From: Gammaproteobacteria bacterium
GTDB taxonomy: Bacteria > Pseudomonadota > Gammaproteobacteria > Nitrosococcales > Methylophagaceae
Reading direction: 5' to 3'
DNA: 45,360 nucleotides
Assembly: GCA_029210875.1 (NCBI GenBank)
Contig: JARGFJ010000021.1
Coordinates: 1-45,360 of the forward strand
This document shows positions 9,806-45,131 of this stretch, piece by piece. A model generated the notes under the pieces. That model was not told the DNA's origin. It ran no database searches and was given only the letters and a program-made list of their open reading frames with translations. How positions within the stretch are numbered: the first letter of the stretch is position 1; the number at the start of each line of letters is the position of its first letter. Made by a program: the position numbers and the translations under genes.

Positions 9806-10057
9806 TCAGGTACAACAGCCTTTCAAATCAGATTTGCTATGCGGTGCATTCTGCATTGGAGGACATACCATCGAACCAAAAGAACAGTAAACGCAACAAT
9901 CCCCCTGGTTTGGTCGCAACAACGTACCACACGATTTGCACTCATAAAAGAATTGGCAGGCATCGGTAGGCATAGTTTCATTTTCAGCATGCCCACATTC
10001 GGGACACGTAATCGTAGATCGAAAAATGACTGTTGTTGCTTGTGTTGTTTCGCTCAT
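9806..10057 (-). CDS. GDCCVxC-domain small cysteine-rich protein
   Basis: This 83-residue protein has eleven cysteines: C18/C21 and C40/C43 form a probable zinc-ribbon pair, and the signature GDCCVYC covers residues 52-58, followed by VCPPMQ. It matches the family NCBI calls 'GDCCVxC domain-containing (seleno)protein', often found beside MerR regulators and Mer-type transporters; some homologues carry selenocysteine, whereas here the positions are ordinary cysteines. A metal-binding or metal-delivery role is inferred. I chose ATG 10057 because it overlaps the merC stop as ATGA and is preceded by AAAGGA; the longer start at 10087 would extend ten residues into merC. It is translationally coupled to merC. 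Confidence 0.85.
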   Translation of the reverse strand: MSETTQATTVIFRSTITCPECGHAENETMPTDACQFFYECKSCGTLLRPNQGDCCVYCSFGSMVCPPMQNAPHSKSDLKGCCT

Positions 10058-33594: not shown

Positions 33595-34083
33595 ATGATT
33601 CAATCTGCTGTCACCGACTTGCTTAATCAGCATAAGTTTAACTACGACGTTATAGAAATTCCGTTATCAGAAGATAAAAAACCAATTAGACAATTAGAAG
33701 AATTATTGCAATCACAAAACCGTGATCCTAATTCCGTTGTAAGAAGCGTGTTATTTAAAAAGAATTCGGGTGGTTTTACCTTGCTAGCCGTTGCAGGCAT
33801 TGGTCGTGCTGATTGGGCATCATTACGTAAACACCTTGGCGAACGTAAATTACGCATGGCGGAATATGATGAAGTTGTTGAAGCAACAGGCTATGTCGTC
33901 GGTGCGGTCCCCCCCGTTGCTTTGCCTGACACAATTCAAGTCTTAGTTGATGATAGTGTGAGCGAGTTTGATACCGTCATTATTGGCAGTGGTGTATTGG
34001 GTTATGCCCTATCCCTTGCAAGTGCTGATTTACTAACATTATTAGCCGAGTGTGATCGTGGTCAGTTTGTTAAAACTGAATAA
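33595..34083 (+). CDS. YbaK/EbsC-domain aminoacyl-tRNA deacylase family protein
   Basis: YbaK-fold proteins hydrolyse mischarged aminoacyl-tRNAs such as Cys- or Ala-tRNA(Pro) in trans. The 162-residue protein shows the family landmarks VVRSVLFKKNSGGFTLLAVA, LGERKLRMAEYDEVVEATGY and VGAVPPVALPD. Its N-terminus (MIQSAVTDLLNQHKFNYDVI) is the typical first helix. The subfamily (YbaK, ProXp-ala or YeaK) cannot be fixed by eye. I chose ATG 33595, which has AGGAG seven bases upstream, rather than the TTG at 33577. It is divergent from ubiK, and converges on the AT-rich two-gene cassette after a small hairpin (34088-34101). Confidence 0.86.
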   Translation: MIQSAVTDLLNQHKFNYDVIEIPLSEDKKPIRQLEELLQSQNRDPNSVVRSVLFKKNSGGFTLLAVAGIGRADWASLRKHLGERKLRMAEYDEVVEATGYVVGAVPPVALPDTIQVLVDDSVSEFDTVIIGSGVLGYALSLASADLLTLLAECDRGQFVKTE

Positions 34084-34116
34084 TCAATGAGACTTTTCTC
34101 AATCGTATTTAAGTTT

Positions 34117-34860
34117 TTAAATCAGCAAAGCTTGTGGATAAGAATGGTGAATTTTATTTTTCAGTAATTTACCATTTTGATGTTTATTCCGTTTAACACC
34201 ATCAGCTCCCCATGTTCCCCACTGTTTAAAGAAGAAAGCAATATTTTGTTCTTCGCATTGCTCCTGAATATTTAGTGCCCACTGTTCTTTCATAGGGCGA
34301 GCTTTACTACCACTTTCTCCGCCAACAATCACCCAGTGAATTCCTGAAAAATCAACATCACCTAGATCTTCTAATAATGGCTCAACAGATAAAAAACGAA
34401 TTTTGGCCGGTATCGTTTTTAAAACTTCCATCCGTGGTAGCCCTTCTTTAATATTTTCAACACTTACTCCCAACCAAACATTGTCAGGTACATTTCTATT
34501 TTGGAAATATGCTAAAAGTTGGTTTTCACGCTTGGTCAATATTTGATAACGATGTTGCGGCGTTTGTTTGATCACTTGAAATACTTTGTCGATAAACTCA
34601 AAAGGTACATTTTCGTGAAATAAATCACTCATAGAGTTTACAAAATAAGTAGTCGGTTTTTTACGCTTAATTGGTTGAGATAATCTTTCCTCTAAAAGAC
34701 TTAATTCAAAACCATTTTGATATCCATTTGCCCCCATGGCTTTTAAACGTTTTGCCATGACTTCGGCGTAACAATGTTTACAACCAGCCGAAACCTTTGT
34801 ACACCCAGTGGTAGGGTTCCAAGTTTGTTCTGTCCATTCTATTTGGCTTTTAGTTGTCAT
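34117..34860 (-). CDS. Three-Cys-motif Gp37/Gp68 (DUF5131) family protein
   Basis: This 247-residue protein belongs to the family named for phage proteins Gp37/Gp68. It opens with IEWTEQTWNPTTGCTKVSAG and has the three-cysteine motif C20-x6-C27-x2-C30 followed by YAE, which suggests an iron-sulfur site related to radical-SAM-like proteins, although the spacing is not the classical C-x3-C-x2-C. Further conserved pieces are VNSMSDLFHE, ILTKR, WLGVSVEN, RFLSVEPLL and WVIVGGESGSKARPM, then FFFKQWGTWG. The biochemical activity is unknown to me. Its ATG overlaps the stop of the TcmP gene (ATGA), and such pairing gives TcmP its name. Confidence 0.9.
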   Translation of the reverse strand: MTTKSQIEWTEQTWNPTTGCTKVSAGCKHCYAEVMAKRLKAMGANGYQNGFELSLLEERLSQPIKRKKPTTYFVNSMSDLFHENVPFEFIDKVFQVIKQTPQHRYQILTKRENQLLAYFQNRNVPDNVWLGVSVENIKEGLPRMEVLKTIPAKIRFLSVEPLLEDLGDVDFSGIHWVIVGGESGSKARPMKEQWALNIQEQCEEQNIAFFFKQWGTWGADGVKRNKHQNGKLLKNKIHHSYPQALLI

Positions 34861-35960
34861 GATATTAATTGAACCGTCACTTTAATCAGATGGTTTTTAT
34901 AGTTTGAATAATTTAAATGATAACCACTTTTTGCATTTAAAAAATATTCTACTTTTATTTTGTTGTTCTTTTTAAATTTTTGTAAAATTTTATTCGTATG
35001 TTTTGGTTTAAAACCTAATTTCAATGTCCATTCATAAATCTCATTATTATTCTTACTTTCTCGTAAGTATAGTTGTAACTCTTGTTCTAGCTCATCAGTT
35101 TTTTGCGCTTCTAAGAACATGTCAACTTGATTGGTATGATTGAATCCACTGCCTTGTTGATCATCTAAACTCCATTTTACTTCTACGATTTTTTCCAATC
35201 CTAAGATATGTTGGGTTATAAAAAATAAAGCATAATAGCTCCCTTTCTGATTTTTAATATGATATGAGGTAGCAAAATATTCATCTTTAAAAGTAAGTGA
35301 TTGCTCTATCGCCTTTATCAAGTCAATATCACCGCTAATCGTATCTACATCAATATCAAATTGTTCTACAAACCCTTTAAGTGGTAAAAAATCTTTTTCA
35401 ATATCATCACCTAGAGTTTTGTCCTTAAAACGTGTCATTTGATTAATAGGTAAAAAAATTATAACTTCCGTTCGCCTATTTCTTAATAACTCCTCAATCA
35501 AAAGCTTATCAATCTGCTTGTATCCATAAGGATCAATAAAAACTAGATTTCTTGTTTTACTATCCTGTTTATTATTTATTCCATCTATTAATTTCTTAAT
35601 TAAATCAGTAGCATCTTCATTATGAGTACGGGTTAAAAATGTTTGTTTCTGTGATTCGAGCCATTCTTTTGTTATTTTTATACGTTTTTTACTCAAGTCA
35701 TTCAAAGTTAATGTAATCTCAGTTTTACTCTCTGGGTAAAATTTTTGAACTCTTTGAATTTGCTTAAAAGCACGAACGGCTCCACTCTCTTTGCCATCAT
35801 CATAAAATGCCTGTCCACAAAACATATCGTAAATATTTATCTTCTCTACATATTGAGTTGTAAACAGAATAGGTAAATATCGTTCTAAATAATGAATATA
35901 AAATTTAAGCTTCGCTTCTGTATGAGGTTTAACAGTATTTTTTGTTTCTTTTCTGCTCAT
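34857..35960 (-). CDS. tcmP: Three-Cys-motif partner protein TcmP
   Basis: A 367-residue protein of the TcmP family, defined by genomic pairing with three-Cys-motif proteins. The N-terminal half looks like a Rossmann-type domain similar to methyltransferases: INIYDMFCGQ at 41-50, LTLNDLS at 84-90, and LVFIDPYGYKQ at 139-149. The C-terminal half (from about residue 290) is helical and basic, with a winged-helix-like GFKPKHTNKILQKFKKNNKI. AAGGA precedes the ATG. It is much richer in A+T and in Lys, Ile and Asn codons than its neighbours, a sign of recent acquisition. The enzymatic activity is not established; a SAM-dependent or nucleic-acid-related role is inferred. Confidence 0.88.
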   Translation of the reverse strand: MSRKETKNTVKPHTEAKLKFYIHYLERYLPILFTTQYVEKINIYDMFCGQAFYDDGKESGAVRAFKQIQRVQKFYPESKTEITLTLNDLSKKRIKITKEWLESQKQTFLTRTHNEDATDLIKKLIDGINNKQDSKTRNLVFIDPYGYKQIDKLLIEELLRNRRTEVIIFLPINQMTRFKDKTLGDDIEKDFLPLKGFVEQFDIDVDTISGDIDLIKAIEQSLTFKDEYFATSYHIKNQKGSYYALFFITQHILGLEKIVEVKWSLDDQQGSGFNHTNQVDMFLEAQKTDELEQELQLYLRESKNNNEIYEWTLKLGFKPKHTNKILQKFKKNNKIKVEYFLNAKSGYHLNYSNYKNHLIKVTVQLIS

Positions 35961-36067
35961 TTTTTATCCTTAAATTATTTATCTTCCATAAGATTAATGA
36001 GTTAGTCATCAAAATTATACTCTTAAAGTATCATCAATCATCTTGATGAAACAGTGCAAATACGATG

Positions 36068-44200: not shown

Positions 44201-44507
44201 CACAACAGTCAGGTAACAATTCAAATATGCGCCATGCCATCGCATCAGTCGAAAAAGCAGACTGTTGCGGCACATCAGGTAACACCTGTCTAAATAACGT
44301 CCAGATATAAGCTGAAGGATATGGAAACTCAATATGACTTGCCACACCATGCTGTTCAGCCAGATACAACGACAACCATCGGGCTAATTCATTACTTTGA
44401 ACAATCACCGTTTCTGCGGTCAATGGAGGCAATGGATCACGCTGTTGTAACTCAGCAAGTTGTGCAGCCAAACGCACCATATCATTACTGTATACAACAT
44501 TTAGCAT
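41292..44507 (-). CDS. recC: Exodeoxyribonuclease V subunit gamma RecC
   Basis: RecC holds RecB and RecD together, splits the DNA strands and recognises Chi. The 1071-residue protein has the inactive helicase- and nuclease-like folds typical of RecC, with AETVIVQSNELARWLSLYLA near the start, FGISALPPVYLKLFELMA, GVTFCGMVPMRSIPFEVVCL, GMNDASYPRQQP and GDRSRRDDDRYLFLEALLS. AAGGA lies nine bases before ATG 44507. It is the first gene of the recCBD operon; a possible -10 box TATAAA for this strand lies at 44581-44586, without a good -35. Residue changes in the Chi-reading channel cannot be judged by eye. Confidence 0.96.
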   Translation of the reverse strand: MLNVVYSNDMVRLAAQLAELQQRDPLPPLTAETVIVQSNELARWLSLYLAEQHGVASHIEFPYPSAYIWTLFRQVLPDVPQQSAFSTDAMAWRIFELLPDCCDDNDFAIVKAYLGEQDDAQKRFALAYRIADIFDQYLMYRPHWLDQWEQGLTPHWQAKLWQKLTAGDAPAMHRANLLQQLNRFLTTTQTRPEGLPQRLAIFGISALPPVYLKLFELMARHCDITLFFLSPSEEYWGDLTDLKTQAKKRLASDNVDDYLSTGHPLLASLGKQGQAFFEQLQEAEHVAIEAFYPPETDTLLGQLQYDIFSLTDRSLDDDKVVVTSNDNSIMVHSCHSTMREIEVLHDQLLALFEHNSDLSPTNVVVMTPDIEVYAPWIDAVFGNASSSQSISYGIADCGIRYQSTLINAFISLLGLPQSRFDSETIISLLECDAIQQRFSIEADQLSLIRQWLRDTNIRWGLSAQHKAEFDLPETENNTWRAGLDRLLLGYAMPLNEQGQATRLFDQQLAFDGITGDRASLMAQLCAFVDCLDEIRFLLKANRTPMQWQVMLNNMLERVFDSRGNDAQDNELILIRQTIDKCVETTQLAEFEQDISLALLKDWLTDNLETSQTVNRFMGHGVTFCGMVPMRSIPFEVVCLIGMNDASYPRQQPIQGFDLLSKDFERGDRSRRDDDRYLFLEALLSCKRHLYISYVGASIRDNTPIPPSVLVSDLRDVINQSFSTEQGEKLWDQLLTKHPLQAFSQRYFNNSELKLFSFDQAQCPTTLEQQSIDWFAQALPEADDDWRYVSLSQLVNFFKHPARFLLRQRLGLRLELADEQLEVREPFDLDGLDAWQLRQQLLQARLNKHDTSDALALAQASGILPQGILGEQIFDKQVDRVDAFSEQLLSHYPSLFIEAIPFEVKVDDFVITGQFEHLSDKGIFVYRMAKTKGHDLVGLWLEHLLLNIVQPKGVLTNSEIVTDDNHYQFKPVDEPMSYLKQLLDFYWQGLHQPLAFFNNTSYAYAQASLNDGRASPENAIKASWFGNQQVSGEADDVYHQQLYTRPPLDQHFQQLALAIYEPIQAHLLGEKL

Positions 44508-44622
44508 TAAATTATGTCCTTGTAATTAACTGTTGGTGGTGTCTGAACCTAACTAATTTCATGACCAGCATAACAAATGTTTTATATACGTCATATCGGT
44601 CATACAAATCGATTGTAGAAGC

Positions 44623-44651
44623 TTGATAGAATGCCGATAGAAGCATATTTT
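44623..44651 (+). promoter_or_regulatory. Possible sigma-70 promoter in the recC-divergent gap
   Basis: TTGATA (44623-44628, five of six consensus bases) and TATTTT (44646-44651, four of six) are spaced by 17 bp in the 261-bp gap between recC and the plus-strand gene at 44769. It would leave a leader of about 110 nt. The rest of the gap is AT-rich with no clear structure. Confidence 0.4.
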
Positions 44652-44768
44652 GATATTTTGTAAAAAAACTATTGTAAAAAAGAAAGAACAAATGCACTAT
44701 CCTCAAAATTTCAATAACAATTCTGTTTGCCGCTACGTTAGCGATAGATTTTATGAGGATTTATTTTT

Positions 44769-45131
44769 ATGAGTAACGATTTCGGTTCCGACGTTTGGTA
44801 TGGCGAATTAAGAGCAACCAAAGGCAACACAATTGTCATTCGTGATGATCAATTACCCGAAGCAAACAAAGGCCGCATCTACCTTTACAACACAGAACGT
44901 GATGCCATCATTCAATATGATGAAACCATTGTTTGTCCTAAATTATTTGAATTAGATGCTGAGCAACGCAAACAAGCAGAAGCTAAATTCAATGCAAGTT
45001 GGGAAGCCGCACGTAAACAATTGATCCGCACACACGGCAAACCATCGGCTCAAGCTGAAGCTAAAAAATCATCAGTAGATGATTTACTGCCAACAGATGA
45101 TGATGACGGTATTGATGAAGATGATGATTAA
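44769..45131 (+). CDS. Conserved hypothetical protein with acidic C-terminal tail
   Basis: A 120-residue soluble protein that I cannot name. The first half (GSDVWYGELRATKGNTIVIR, and IYLYNTERDAIIQY) looks beta-rich, like a small barrel; a helical segment follows (DAEQRKQAEAKFNASWEAAR), and the end is strikingly acidic: SVDDLLPTDDDDGIDEDDD. Acidic tails of this kind can mimic DNA or contact basic proteins, which is only inference. GAGGA precedes the ATG by nine bases and a strong terminator follows, so it is a single-gene transcription unit divergent from recCBD. Confidence 0.75.
   Translation: MSNDFGSDVWYGELRATKGNTIVIRDDQLPEANKGRIYLYNTERDAIIQYDETIVCPKLFELDAEQRKQAEAKFNASWEAARKQLIRTHGKPSAQAEAKKSSVDDLLPTDDDDGIDEDDD

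What the first reader, a model, noticed from the sequence alone, without database searches (positions are those of the whole stretch)
34117..35960. AT-rich TcmP / three-Cys two-gene cassette beside recBCD
Two overlapping genes (ATGA) encode a TcmP-family protein with methyltransferase-like motifs (DMFCGQ, FIDPYG) plus a winged-helix-like tail, and a Gp37/Gp68-type protein with a C-x6-C-x2-C site. Their base composition is visibly more AT-rich than the flanking ubiK, ybaK-like and recD genes, and the pair sits directly after recD, whose complex destroys foreign linear DNA. Family pairing is known, but I know of no established activity. A nucleic-acid modification or anti-phage role is inference from composition, the phage-related family, and context.
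Basis: partly seen in the sequence, partly recalled or inferred. Interest (0 to 1): 0.7.

Follow-up and report, generated by a model that had tools for sequence, protein, structure and literature searches.

The report
Acquired methyltransferase and radical-SAM gene pair
This is a small, AT-rich, recently gained two-gene cassette that very likely encodes a nucleic-acid methyltransferase and a radical-SAM enzyme working together; the pair is already listed as an untested phage-defence candidate, and its chemistry can now be tested directly.

Summary
Two genes overlapping by ATGA (TcmP 34857-35960, DUF5131 34117-34860) sit between ybaK and recD and are AT-rich (GC 0.28 and 0.36; 36 other ORFs 0.412 +/- 0.021). 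Acquisition is supported: 0 of 24 same-genus genomes carry DUF5131; the closest loses homology at the ybaK and recD stop codons and has an MmeI-type restriction-modification gene beside recD. The pair is not new: PADLOC lists it as candidate PDC-M30, with no activity shown. What I add is mechanism. TcmP models as an RlmJ-like methyltransferase with a winged-helix tail; the Lys and Asp that RlmJ needs are kept in 62 and 63 of 63 TcmPs. DUF5131 models as a radical-SAM barrel with an invariant CX6CX2C. DUF5131 is nearly constant; TcmP is hypervariable, and one partner swap is demonstrated; 16 of 80 loci hold two TcmPs with one DUF5131. In 10 of 80 loci a LexA-like regulator lies directly upstream. 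Most likely: a mobile two-enzyme nucleic-acid modification cassette used in conflict with phages or mobile elements; a DNA-damage role is a strong rival. Anti-phage action is unproven.

The parts
34857..35960 (-). TcmP (three-Cys-motif partner), 367 aa; RlmJ-like methyltransferase plus C-terminal winged helix
   Evidence: TIGR04474 1.2e-35; PDC-M30A 5.5e-94; AlphaFold2 model and fold comparison; hhalign to RlmJ
34117..34860 (-). DUF5131 (phage Gp37/Gp68 family), 247 aa; radical-SAM-like barrel
   Evidence: PF07505 8.8e-108; PDC-M30B 1.1e-115; TIGR04471 'radical SAM mobile pair protein A' 2e-31, below its cut-off; model
34857..34860 (-). ATGA stop/start overlap joining the two genes
   Evidence: sequence read
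35142..35942 (-). methyltransferase domain, TcmP residues 7-273
   Evidence: range aligned to E. coli RlmJ, Z 17.2, rmsd 2.9, 201 residues
35910..35912 (-). codon of Lys17, equivalent of the catalytic K18 of RlmJ
   Evidence: hhalign column; K in 62 of 63 TcmPs, one gap
35532..35534 (-). codon of Asp143 (motif IV, D-P-Y-G), equivalent of RlmJ D164
   Evidence: hhalign column; D in 63 of 63 TcmPs
34866..35114 (-). winged-helix-like tail, TcmP residues about 283-365
   Evidence: secondary structure of the model, with low confidence around 345-358; GMT-wHTH 0.0026, below cut-off
34771..34803 (-). C-x6-C-x2-C site of DUF5131 (C20, C27, C30)
   Evidence: invariant in 26 aligned sequences and in 68 of 68
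34084..36067 (.). AT-rich interval between the ybaK and recD stop codons, without a match in the fetched contigs of the closest genome
   Evidence: homology to G004 ends at 34083 and at 36066; GC

Best explanation
A horizontally gained two-gene cassette of the PDC-M30 type. TcmP is an RlmJ-like, SAM-dependent amino-methyltransferase that uses a Lys-Asp pair (K17, D143) to activate an exocyclic amine of a nucleobase, and its winged helix helps it hold nucleic acid. DUF5131 is a radical-SAM enzyme whose CX6CX2C site holds an Fe-S cluster. I infer that they act on the same nucleic acid, TcmP choosing and methylating the site and DUF5131 doing a constant second step, and that the cassette is carried for conflict with phages or other mobile elements. 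Shown here: the pairing, the acquisition, predicted folds, conserved catalytic residues and one case of partner exchange. Inferred: catalytic activity, nucleic acid as substrate, the order of the two steps, and the biological role.
For: Acquisition: PF07505 in 0 of 24 same-genus genomes; homology to the closest genome G004 stops at both flanking stop codons, with a five-domain MmeI-type enzyme beside recD there; low GC. Pairing: TcmP within 500 bp of DUF5131 in 73 of 80 loci, and a DUF5131 ORF beside TcmP in 18 of 19 other class-level TcmP loci. TcmP: RlmJ-family chains lead the VIA-align look, Z 16.7-17.3, then Trm1 14.2 tied with histamine methyltransferase 13.9; profile comparison 94.6% probability with K17 on K18 and D143 on the motif IV Asp; both residues are needed for RlmJ activity (PMC3814359, abstract and passages). 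DUF5131: spore photoproduct lyase Z 12.4, viperin 11.8, RlmN 11.3; the first 39 rows are all radical-SAM enzymes. Asymmetry: median identity 66% for DUF5131 against 18% for TcmP, in loci chosen by DUF5131; two TcmPs with one DUF5131 in 16 of 80 loci; partner swap p-AU 5e-8. Conflict context: PDC-M30; integrase directly upstream on three plasmids; McrC and N-6 methylase nearby; next to a phage repressor.
Against: No activity of either protein is known. TcmP motif IV is D-P/Q-Y-G, not DPPY, and Pfam's RlmJ model does not match it. Plain Foldseek ranks other methyltransferases above RlmJ. DUF5131's Cys spacing is not the canonical CX3CX2C; its best Foldseek hits are SPL at E 1.9e-3 and 4.3e-3, followed by unrelated proteins. 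No nuclease accompanies the pair. Phages carry it. Three of 80 loci hold DUF5131 with no TcmP found although not near a contig end, as does one of 8 inspected plasmids. Far neighbours match PADLOC families too, so defence enrichment is not shown, and the Pfam near/far contrast rests on small numbers.
Confidence: 0.5

Rival explanations
1. DNA-damage response cassette: DUF5131 repairs or edits a damaged base, like spore photoproduct lyase, TcmP marks or recognises DNA, and the set is induced by RecA through LexA-like regulators.
For: Closest fold is spore photoproduct lyase. A LexA/S24-like protein (seed named by eye) lies directly upstream on the same strand in 10 of 80 loci, overlapping DUF5131 by 4 bases in L152, L156, L172 and L180, and an annotated S24 peptidase does so on a Comamonas plasmid. 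Peptidase_S24 matches 6 of 142 near and at most 1 of 124 far ORFs. A solo DUF5131 locus, L132, holds a DinB-like gene (recognised by eye).
Against: Viperin and RlmN lie within about 1 Z unit, so the fold does not single out SPL. LexA/CI-like control is equally typical of prophage and mobile-element cargo. TcmP hypervariability is unlike a housekeeping repair enzyme. The window copy has no such regulator. One of the ten loci, L156, has no TcmP.
Confidence: 0.2
2. RNA modification cassette: TcmP methylates tRNA or rRNA, as RlmJ does, and DUF5131 adds a second change, as TYW1 does on a base methylated by Trm5 (recalled), protecting RNA from phage or host nucleases.
For: RlmJ is the nearest methyltransferase by fold, with Trm1 among the next; RlmN and TYW1 are among the radical-SAM matches.
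Against: RlmJ's active site is described as more similar to DNA m6A enzymes than to RNA m62A enzymes (PMC3814359 abstract); the winged helix and LexA-type neighbours point as much to DNA.
Confidence: 0.2
3. DUF5131 is a maturase that modifies the TcmP protein itself, and TcmP alone is the working enzyme.
For: Close pairing, and one DUF5131 with two different TcmPs.
Against: The TcmP residues kept in nearly all sequences (K17, D45, F47, G49, D143; Y24 in 60 of 63) lie mostly at methyltransferase motif positions; no separate target site is visible.
Confidence: 0.07
4. An ordinary chromosomal pair with drifted composition, not acquired.
For: Genes are intact and tightly overlapped.
Against: 0 of 24 same-genus genomes have DUF5131; breakpoints at both stop codons against a genome about 94% identical at the junctions.
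Confidence: 0.03

Closest known systems
PDC-M30 (PADLOC-DB phage defence candidate; components M30A and M30B)
   Same: Both components match strongly and are adjacent
   Different: PDC-M30 is itself only a 'guilt-by-embedding' candidate without an assigned function. The window pair adds an acquired-site example and a mechanism to test
RlmJ, 23S rRNA m6A2030 methyltransferase
   Same: Fold (Z 17.2, rmsd 2.9 over 201 residues), motif X Lys and motif IV Asp
   Different: DPYG instead of DPPY, added C-terminal winged helix, mobile and paired with DUF5131, no match to the Pfam RlmJ profile
Spore photoproduct lyase (radical SAM)
   Same: Barrel fold (Z 12.4, rmsd 3.0 over 191 residues)
   Different: CX6CX2C spacing, 247 aa, no credible sequence match in the PDB; viperin nearly ties
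TIGR04471/TIGR04470 radical SAM mobile pairs
   Same: DUF5131 resembles pair protein A (E 2e-31), and that family is also found on plasmids
   Different: Score 109 is far under the cut-off of 355; the partner here is TcmP, not protein B
Restriction-modification systems
   Same: Methyltransferase-like gene on mobile DNA, in the slot where G004 has an MmeI-type enzyme
   Different: No restriction nuclease in the cassette

Membership tests
PDC-M30 | component A and component B profiles matched by neighbouring genes | tested here: met
   5.5e-94 and 1.1e-115
PDC-M30 | anti-phage activity | not testable with these tools
   PMC10855318 (passages) reports PDC-M30 in 32 of 100 P. aeruginosa strains, 68.8% of them phage-resistant: a correlation
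TcmP, TIGR04474 | score over curated cut-off | tested here: met
   123.7 against 53
DUF5131, PF07505 | score over gathering cut-off | tested here: met
   359.8 against 28.9
RlmJ, PF04378 | match to the family profile | tested here: not met
   not among Pfam matches up to E 1; a true RlmJ scores 266 bits
RlmJ, PF04378 | catalytic Lys and motif IV Asp | tested here: met
   hhalign columns and 62/63 (one gap), 63/63 conservation
RlmJ, PF04378 | DPPY motif IV | tested here: not met
   D-P/Q then mostly Y, mostly G in TcmPs
Radical SAM superfamily | partial TIM-barrel fold | tested here: met
   rows 1-39 of the VIA-align look are radical-SAM enzymes, Z 12.4 to 9.3; Foldseek alone is weaker
Radical SAM superfamily | three Cys for a 4Fe-4S cluster, canonical CX3CX2C | tested here: inconclusive
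   three invariant Cys but CX6CX2C; the cluster itself is not testable here
Spore photoproduct lyase | lesion repair and hydrogen-donor Cys | not tested
   only the fold was compared
Restriction-modification | nuclease in the cassette | tested here: not met
   two genes only, neither with a nuclease family among Pfam matches up to E 1

The most novel reading that the evidence does not exclude
A modular nucleic-acid hypermodification system in which one constant radical-SAM enzyme finishes the work of interchangeable RlmJ-like methyltransferases: TcmP places a methyl on a base of its own choosing and DUF5131 attacks it by radical chemistry. Diversification and swapping of TcmP would change the target while the chemistry stays fixed, and LexA/CI-like switches would turn the set on during infection or DNA damage.
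Probability: 0.25. Interest if true: 0.85.

Novelty: new member of a known kind. Interest (0 to 1): 0.5.

Why it matters
The pair is widespread (TcmP above cut-off in 20 of 369 class-level genomes, the window's own included; DUF5131 in 408 of 72,556 plasmid records and 161 of 50,697 phage records), and I found no known activity. A Lys-Asp methyltransferase and a radical-SAM enzyme in one mobile unit would be a new modification chemistry in phage-host conflict or a new damage response, and named residues now make it testable.

Tried and rejected
Mobility signals of its own: no transposase or integrase gene in the cassette, no convincing terminal repeats, and the spacer before recD occurs once in the held genome. 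I treat it as passive cargo.

Close relatives of the window TcmP are rare: none in viral contigs; 1 of 397 other phylum-level genomes by single sequence, at 24% identity; five plasmids, best 29%; eight Gordonia phage records at 22-25%.

Sequence relatives of known structure: none credible for either protein alone or as profile. Plain Foldseek ranked histamine methyltransferase and others first for TcmP, with no RlmJ in the 50 rows shown; RlmJ led only in the VIA-align second look. For DUF5131 Foldseek gave two SPL chains and then unrelated proteins.

Neighbourhood test against PADLOC: 251 families matched by 142 near ORFs, 96 by 124 far ORFs. One protein matches many families, and counts per protein were not given. 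Far ORFs also match defence models (for example DrmD 2, mad2 3; mad2 also 3 near). I do not claim defence enrichment. Near and far ORFs came from 37 of 80 loci, those with at least 8.6 kb on both sides; ORFs under 110 aa or over 1000 aa, and those with unread bases, were dropped.

TcmP counts: of the 68 adjacent TcmP ORFs, 5 are under 250 aa, perhaps cut by my simple ORF picker, and were left out of residue counts (63 used). That picker also missed DUF5131 in four loci, which I mended from the match coordinates.

Tree of DUF5131: 63 loci with TcmP of 250 aa or more plus the window; 17 of 80 loci left out, among them L119, a partial DUF5131 at a contig end that is 85% identical to the window's. 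Tree of TcmP: 39 TcmPs of 330 aa or more, the window, one plasmid and one phage copy; some long branches meet, so only the window/L118 test is used. Both trees are of the 'quick' kind.

The ybaK-recD order itself is not fixed: in G004 ybaK sits beside genes that lie on another contig of the window genome, and in G016 and G019 the two genes are about 56 and 308 kb apart on one contig. So one insertion between two always-adjacent genes is too simple. The search for the DUF853-like gene in G000 and G004 found nothing but had no positive control.

Codon-usage statistics beyond GC and GC3 were not computed. The E. coli control hit of TIGR04474 was not itself inspected; the similar-sized hit L107 is RlmJ. 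One search listed 30 of 394 papers, mostly other uses of the letters TCMP; PMC7387457 and PMC5463345 were seen only as listings.

Full report
Observation. Their families are TcmP (TIGR04474) and DUF5131 (PF07505). GC is 0.284 for TcmP and 0.363 for DUF5131 against 0.412 +/- 0.021 for 36 other ORFs in the window; GC3 is also low, z -3.4 and -1.9. The flanks are ppnP, ubiK, ybaK-like, recD and recB.

Acquisition. Among 40 related genomes, the window's own included, DUF5131 occurs in 3, and in 0 of the 24 others of the same genus. Against the closest genome, G004 (about 94% identical at the junctions), homology ends at 34083, the ybaK stop, and at 36066, two bases past the recD stop. Beside recD, G004 has a 912-aa protein with all five MmeI domains, a restriction-modification enzyme. 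In five other genus members with ybaK and recD close together on one contig, the gap is 0.8 to 7.1 kb and holds other genes, for example a HerA/DUF853-like ATPase and small methyltransferases named by eye. In G016 and G019 the two genes are on one contig but far apart. In G004 they are on different contigs, and ybaK has other neighbours. So the region is rearranged as well as invaded. The cassette has no mobility gene or clear terminal repeat of its own.

Pairing and diversity. Of 20 class-level loci with TcmP, 19 show a DUF5131 ORF next door (found by motif), the window's own included; L096 does not. Of 80 genome loci fetched by DUF5131 similarity (the best 80 of 552 confirmed stretches), 68 have TcmP within 300 bp and five more within 500 bp. 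One has it 1.9 kb away and six have none, three of these close to contig ends. The 68 pairs are arranged TcmP first (27), DUF5131 first (22) or convergent (19), never divergent. Median pairwise identity is 66% for DUF5131 and 18% for TcmP; the loci were chosen by DUF5131 similarity, which inflates the contrast. Arrangement needs at least 9 changes on the DUF5131 tree (shuffled mean 30.2; starred branches force only 2 for each group). Sixteen of 80 loci hold two TcmPs with one detected DUF5131. Among the rows of the tree, the window's DUF5131 is sister, with starred support 99, to that of a Bathymodiolus endosymbiont (L118, 82% identical). Yet their TcmPs fall in different clades: holding them together is rejected, p-AU 5e-8 (the pair was named from the DUF5131 tree, after I had seen that single-sequence search does not link their TcmPs). 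The window's TcmP is nearest to one from Flavobacteriales (31%) and one on a Hymenobacter plasmid (29%). So partners have been exchanged here, and the GC step between the two window genes fits that.

What the proteins are. The TcmP model (mean pLDDT 82.5, pTM 0.83) matches RlmJ-family structures best in the VIA-align look: 2oo3 Z 17.3, rmsd 2.8, 201 residues; E. coli RlmJ 6qe5 Z 17.2, rmsd 2.9, 201 residues; then Trm1 14.2 and histamine methyltransferase 13.9, which are tied. Plain Foldseek put other methyltransferases first, best E 6.5e-6, with no RlmJ in the rows shown. Profile-profile comparison with seven RlmJ-like sequences gives 94.6% probability, E 7e-8, and puts K17 on RlmJ K18, the DxFxG motif on DxHAG, and D143-P144 on the motif IV Asp-Pro. 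In RlmJ, K18A and D164A abolish activity, and the paper compares this pair with K11 and D171 of T4 Dam (PMC3814359, abstract and passages). Across 63 TcmPs K17 is kept in 62 (one gap) and D143 in 63; position 144 is P in 34 and Q in 29. The DUF5131 model (pLDDT 82.5, pTM 0.82) matches spore photoproduct lyase (Z 12.4, rmsd 3.0, 191 residues), viperin (11.8) and RlmN (11.3); the first 39 rows are radical-SAM enzymes. Foldseek alone is weaker: SPL at E 1.9e-3 and 4.3e-3, then unrelated proteins. Its CX6CX2C-YA is kept in 68 of 68.

Context. On plasmids DUF5131 occurs in 408 of 72,556 records. I inspected eight, picked by me from the more similar half of the 40 listed: seven have an annotated TcmP next to it, one (Roseovarius) does not. 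Three, from Stutzerimonas and Pseudomonas, share integrase-DUF5131-TcmP; Nocardioides has McrC and an N-6 DNA methylase nearby; Agrobacterium has two TcmPs. A ninth plasmid, Hymenobacter, found by its TcmP, also has the pair, near an integrase and a transposase. Gordonia phage Bosnia carries the pair convergently, TcmP overlapping the annotated repressor by 4 bases, about 3 kb from the integrase. Two other phages inspected have DUF5131 beside an annotated DNA methylase (Bakery) or with no annotated partner (Bipper). Among the nearest ORFs of 37 loci, Phage_integrase matches 6 of 142 and Peptidase_S24 6 of 142; neither reaches 2 of 124 among far ORFs. A LexA/S24-like protein lies directly upstream on the same strand in 10 of 80 loci: five end at or overlap DUF5131, five precede TcmP by 5 to 110 bases, three of these from one Gallionellaceae group. 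The PADLOC comparison of near and far ORFs does not show a clean excess of defence genes.

Literature. PADLOC lists both proteins as PDC-M30. PMC10855318 (passages) calls PDCs non-validated and finds PDC-M30 in 32 of 100 P. aeruginosa strains, 68.8% phage-resistant. PMC11878078 (passage) lists two PDC-M30 in PA14. PMC12445080 (a table passage) lists a TcmP gene, SMa2243, directly after the Hna defence gene SMa2245; the passage does not show whether they are one operon. PMC12429752 (a table passage) lists TcmP in Sinorhizobium prophages. PMC3765255 (abstract and passages) links SplB-like radical-SAM photolyases to SOS operons. PMC12988326 (passages) says that most PDCs await experiments. Searches for TcmP, three-Cys-motif, DUF5131, PF07505, Gp68 family, GMT-wHTH and PDC-M30 showed no paper on their activity; one search showed 30 of 394 papers, and most subscription journals are not held.

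Judgement. Acquisition is well supported (about 0.9). The RlmJ-like and radical-SAM folds are well supported (about 0.85 each), activity less so (about 0.7). Nucleic acid as substrate is likely (about 0.65). Anti-phage use is plausible but unproven (about 0.45), with a DNA-damage role as the main rival on function. The locus is a new member of a known but uncharacterised kind.

Noticed in passing
L075:4413-4775: In genus member G006 a second, partial recD C-terminus lies about 2.5 kb from the intact recD, with transposase-like ORFs between (named by eye): the recD 3' side looks recombination-prone.
   Followed up: partly
L069:753-3491: Complete MmeI-type restriction-modification gene directly beside recD in the closest genome, G004, in the slot where the window has TcmP.
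   Followed up: yes
L152, L156, L172, L180, just upstream of DUF5131 (end at 10004): LexA/S24-like regulator overlapping DUF5131 by 4 bases, suggesting RecA-linked control.
   Followed up: partly
L132:2329-6484: A DUF5131 without TcmP, in a locus that also holds a DUF72-like gene and a DinB-like polymerase gene (recognised by eye).
   Followed up: no
window genome, 42 matches listed: Two short stretches of about 130-170 bases from between genes of G004 recur on many contigs of the window genome, like miniature interspersed elements.
   Followed up: no
L074:7633-8415: An ORF downstream of ybaK in G006 that looks like a class D beta-lactamase by eye.
   Followed up: no
window 44501-45000: Another GC dip (0.342) just past the ORF that ends at 44507 (probably recC, not tested).
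   Followed up: no
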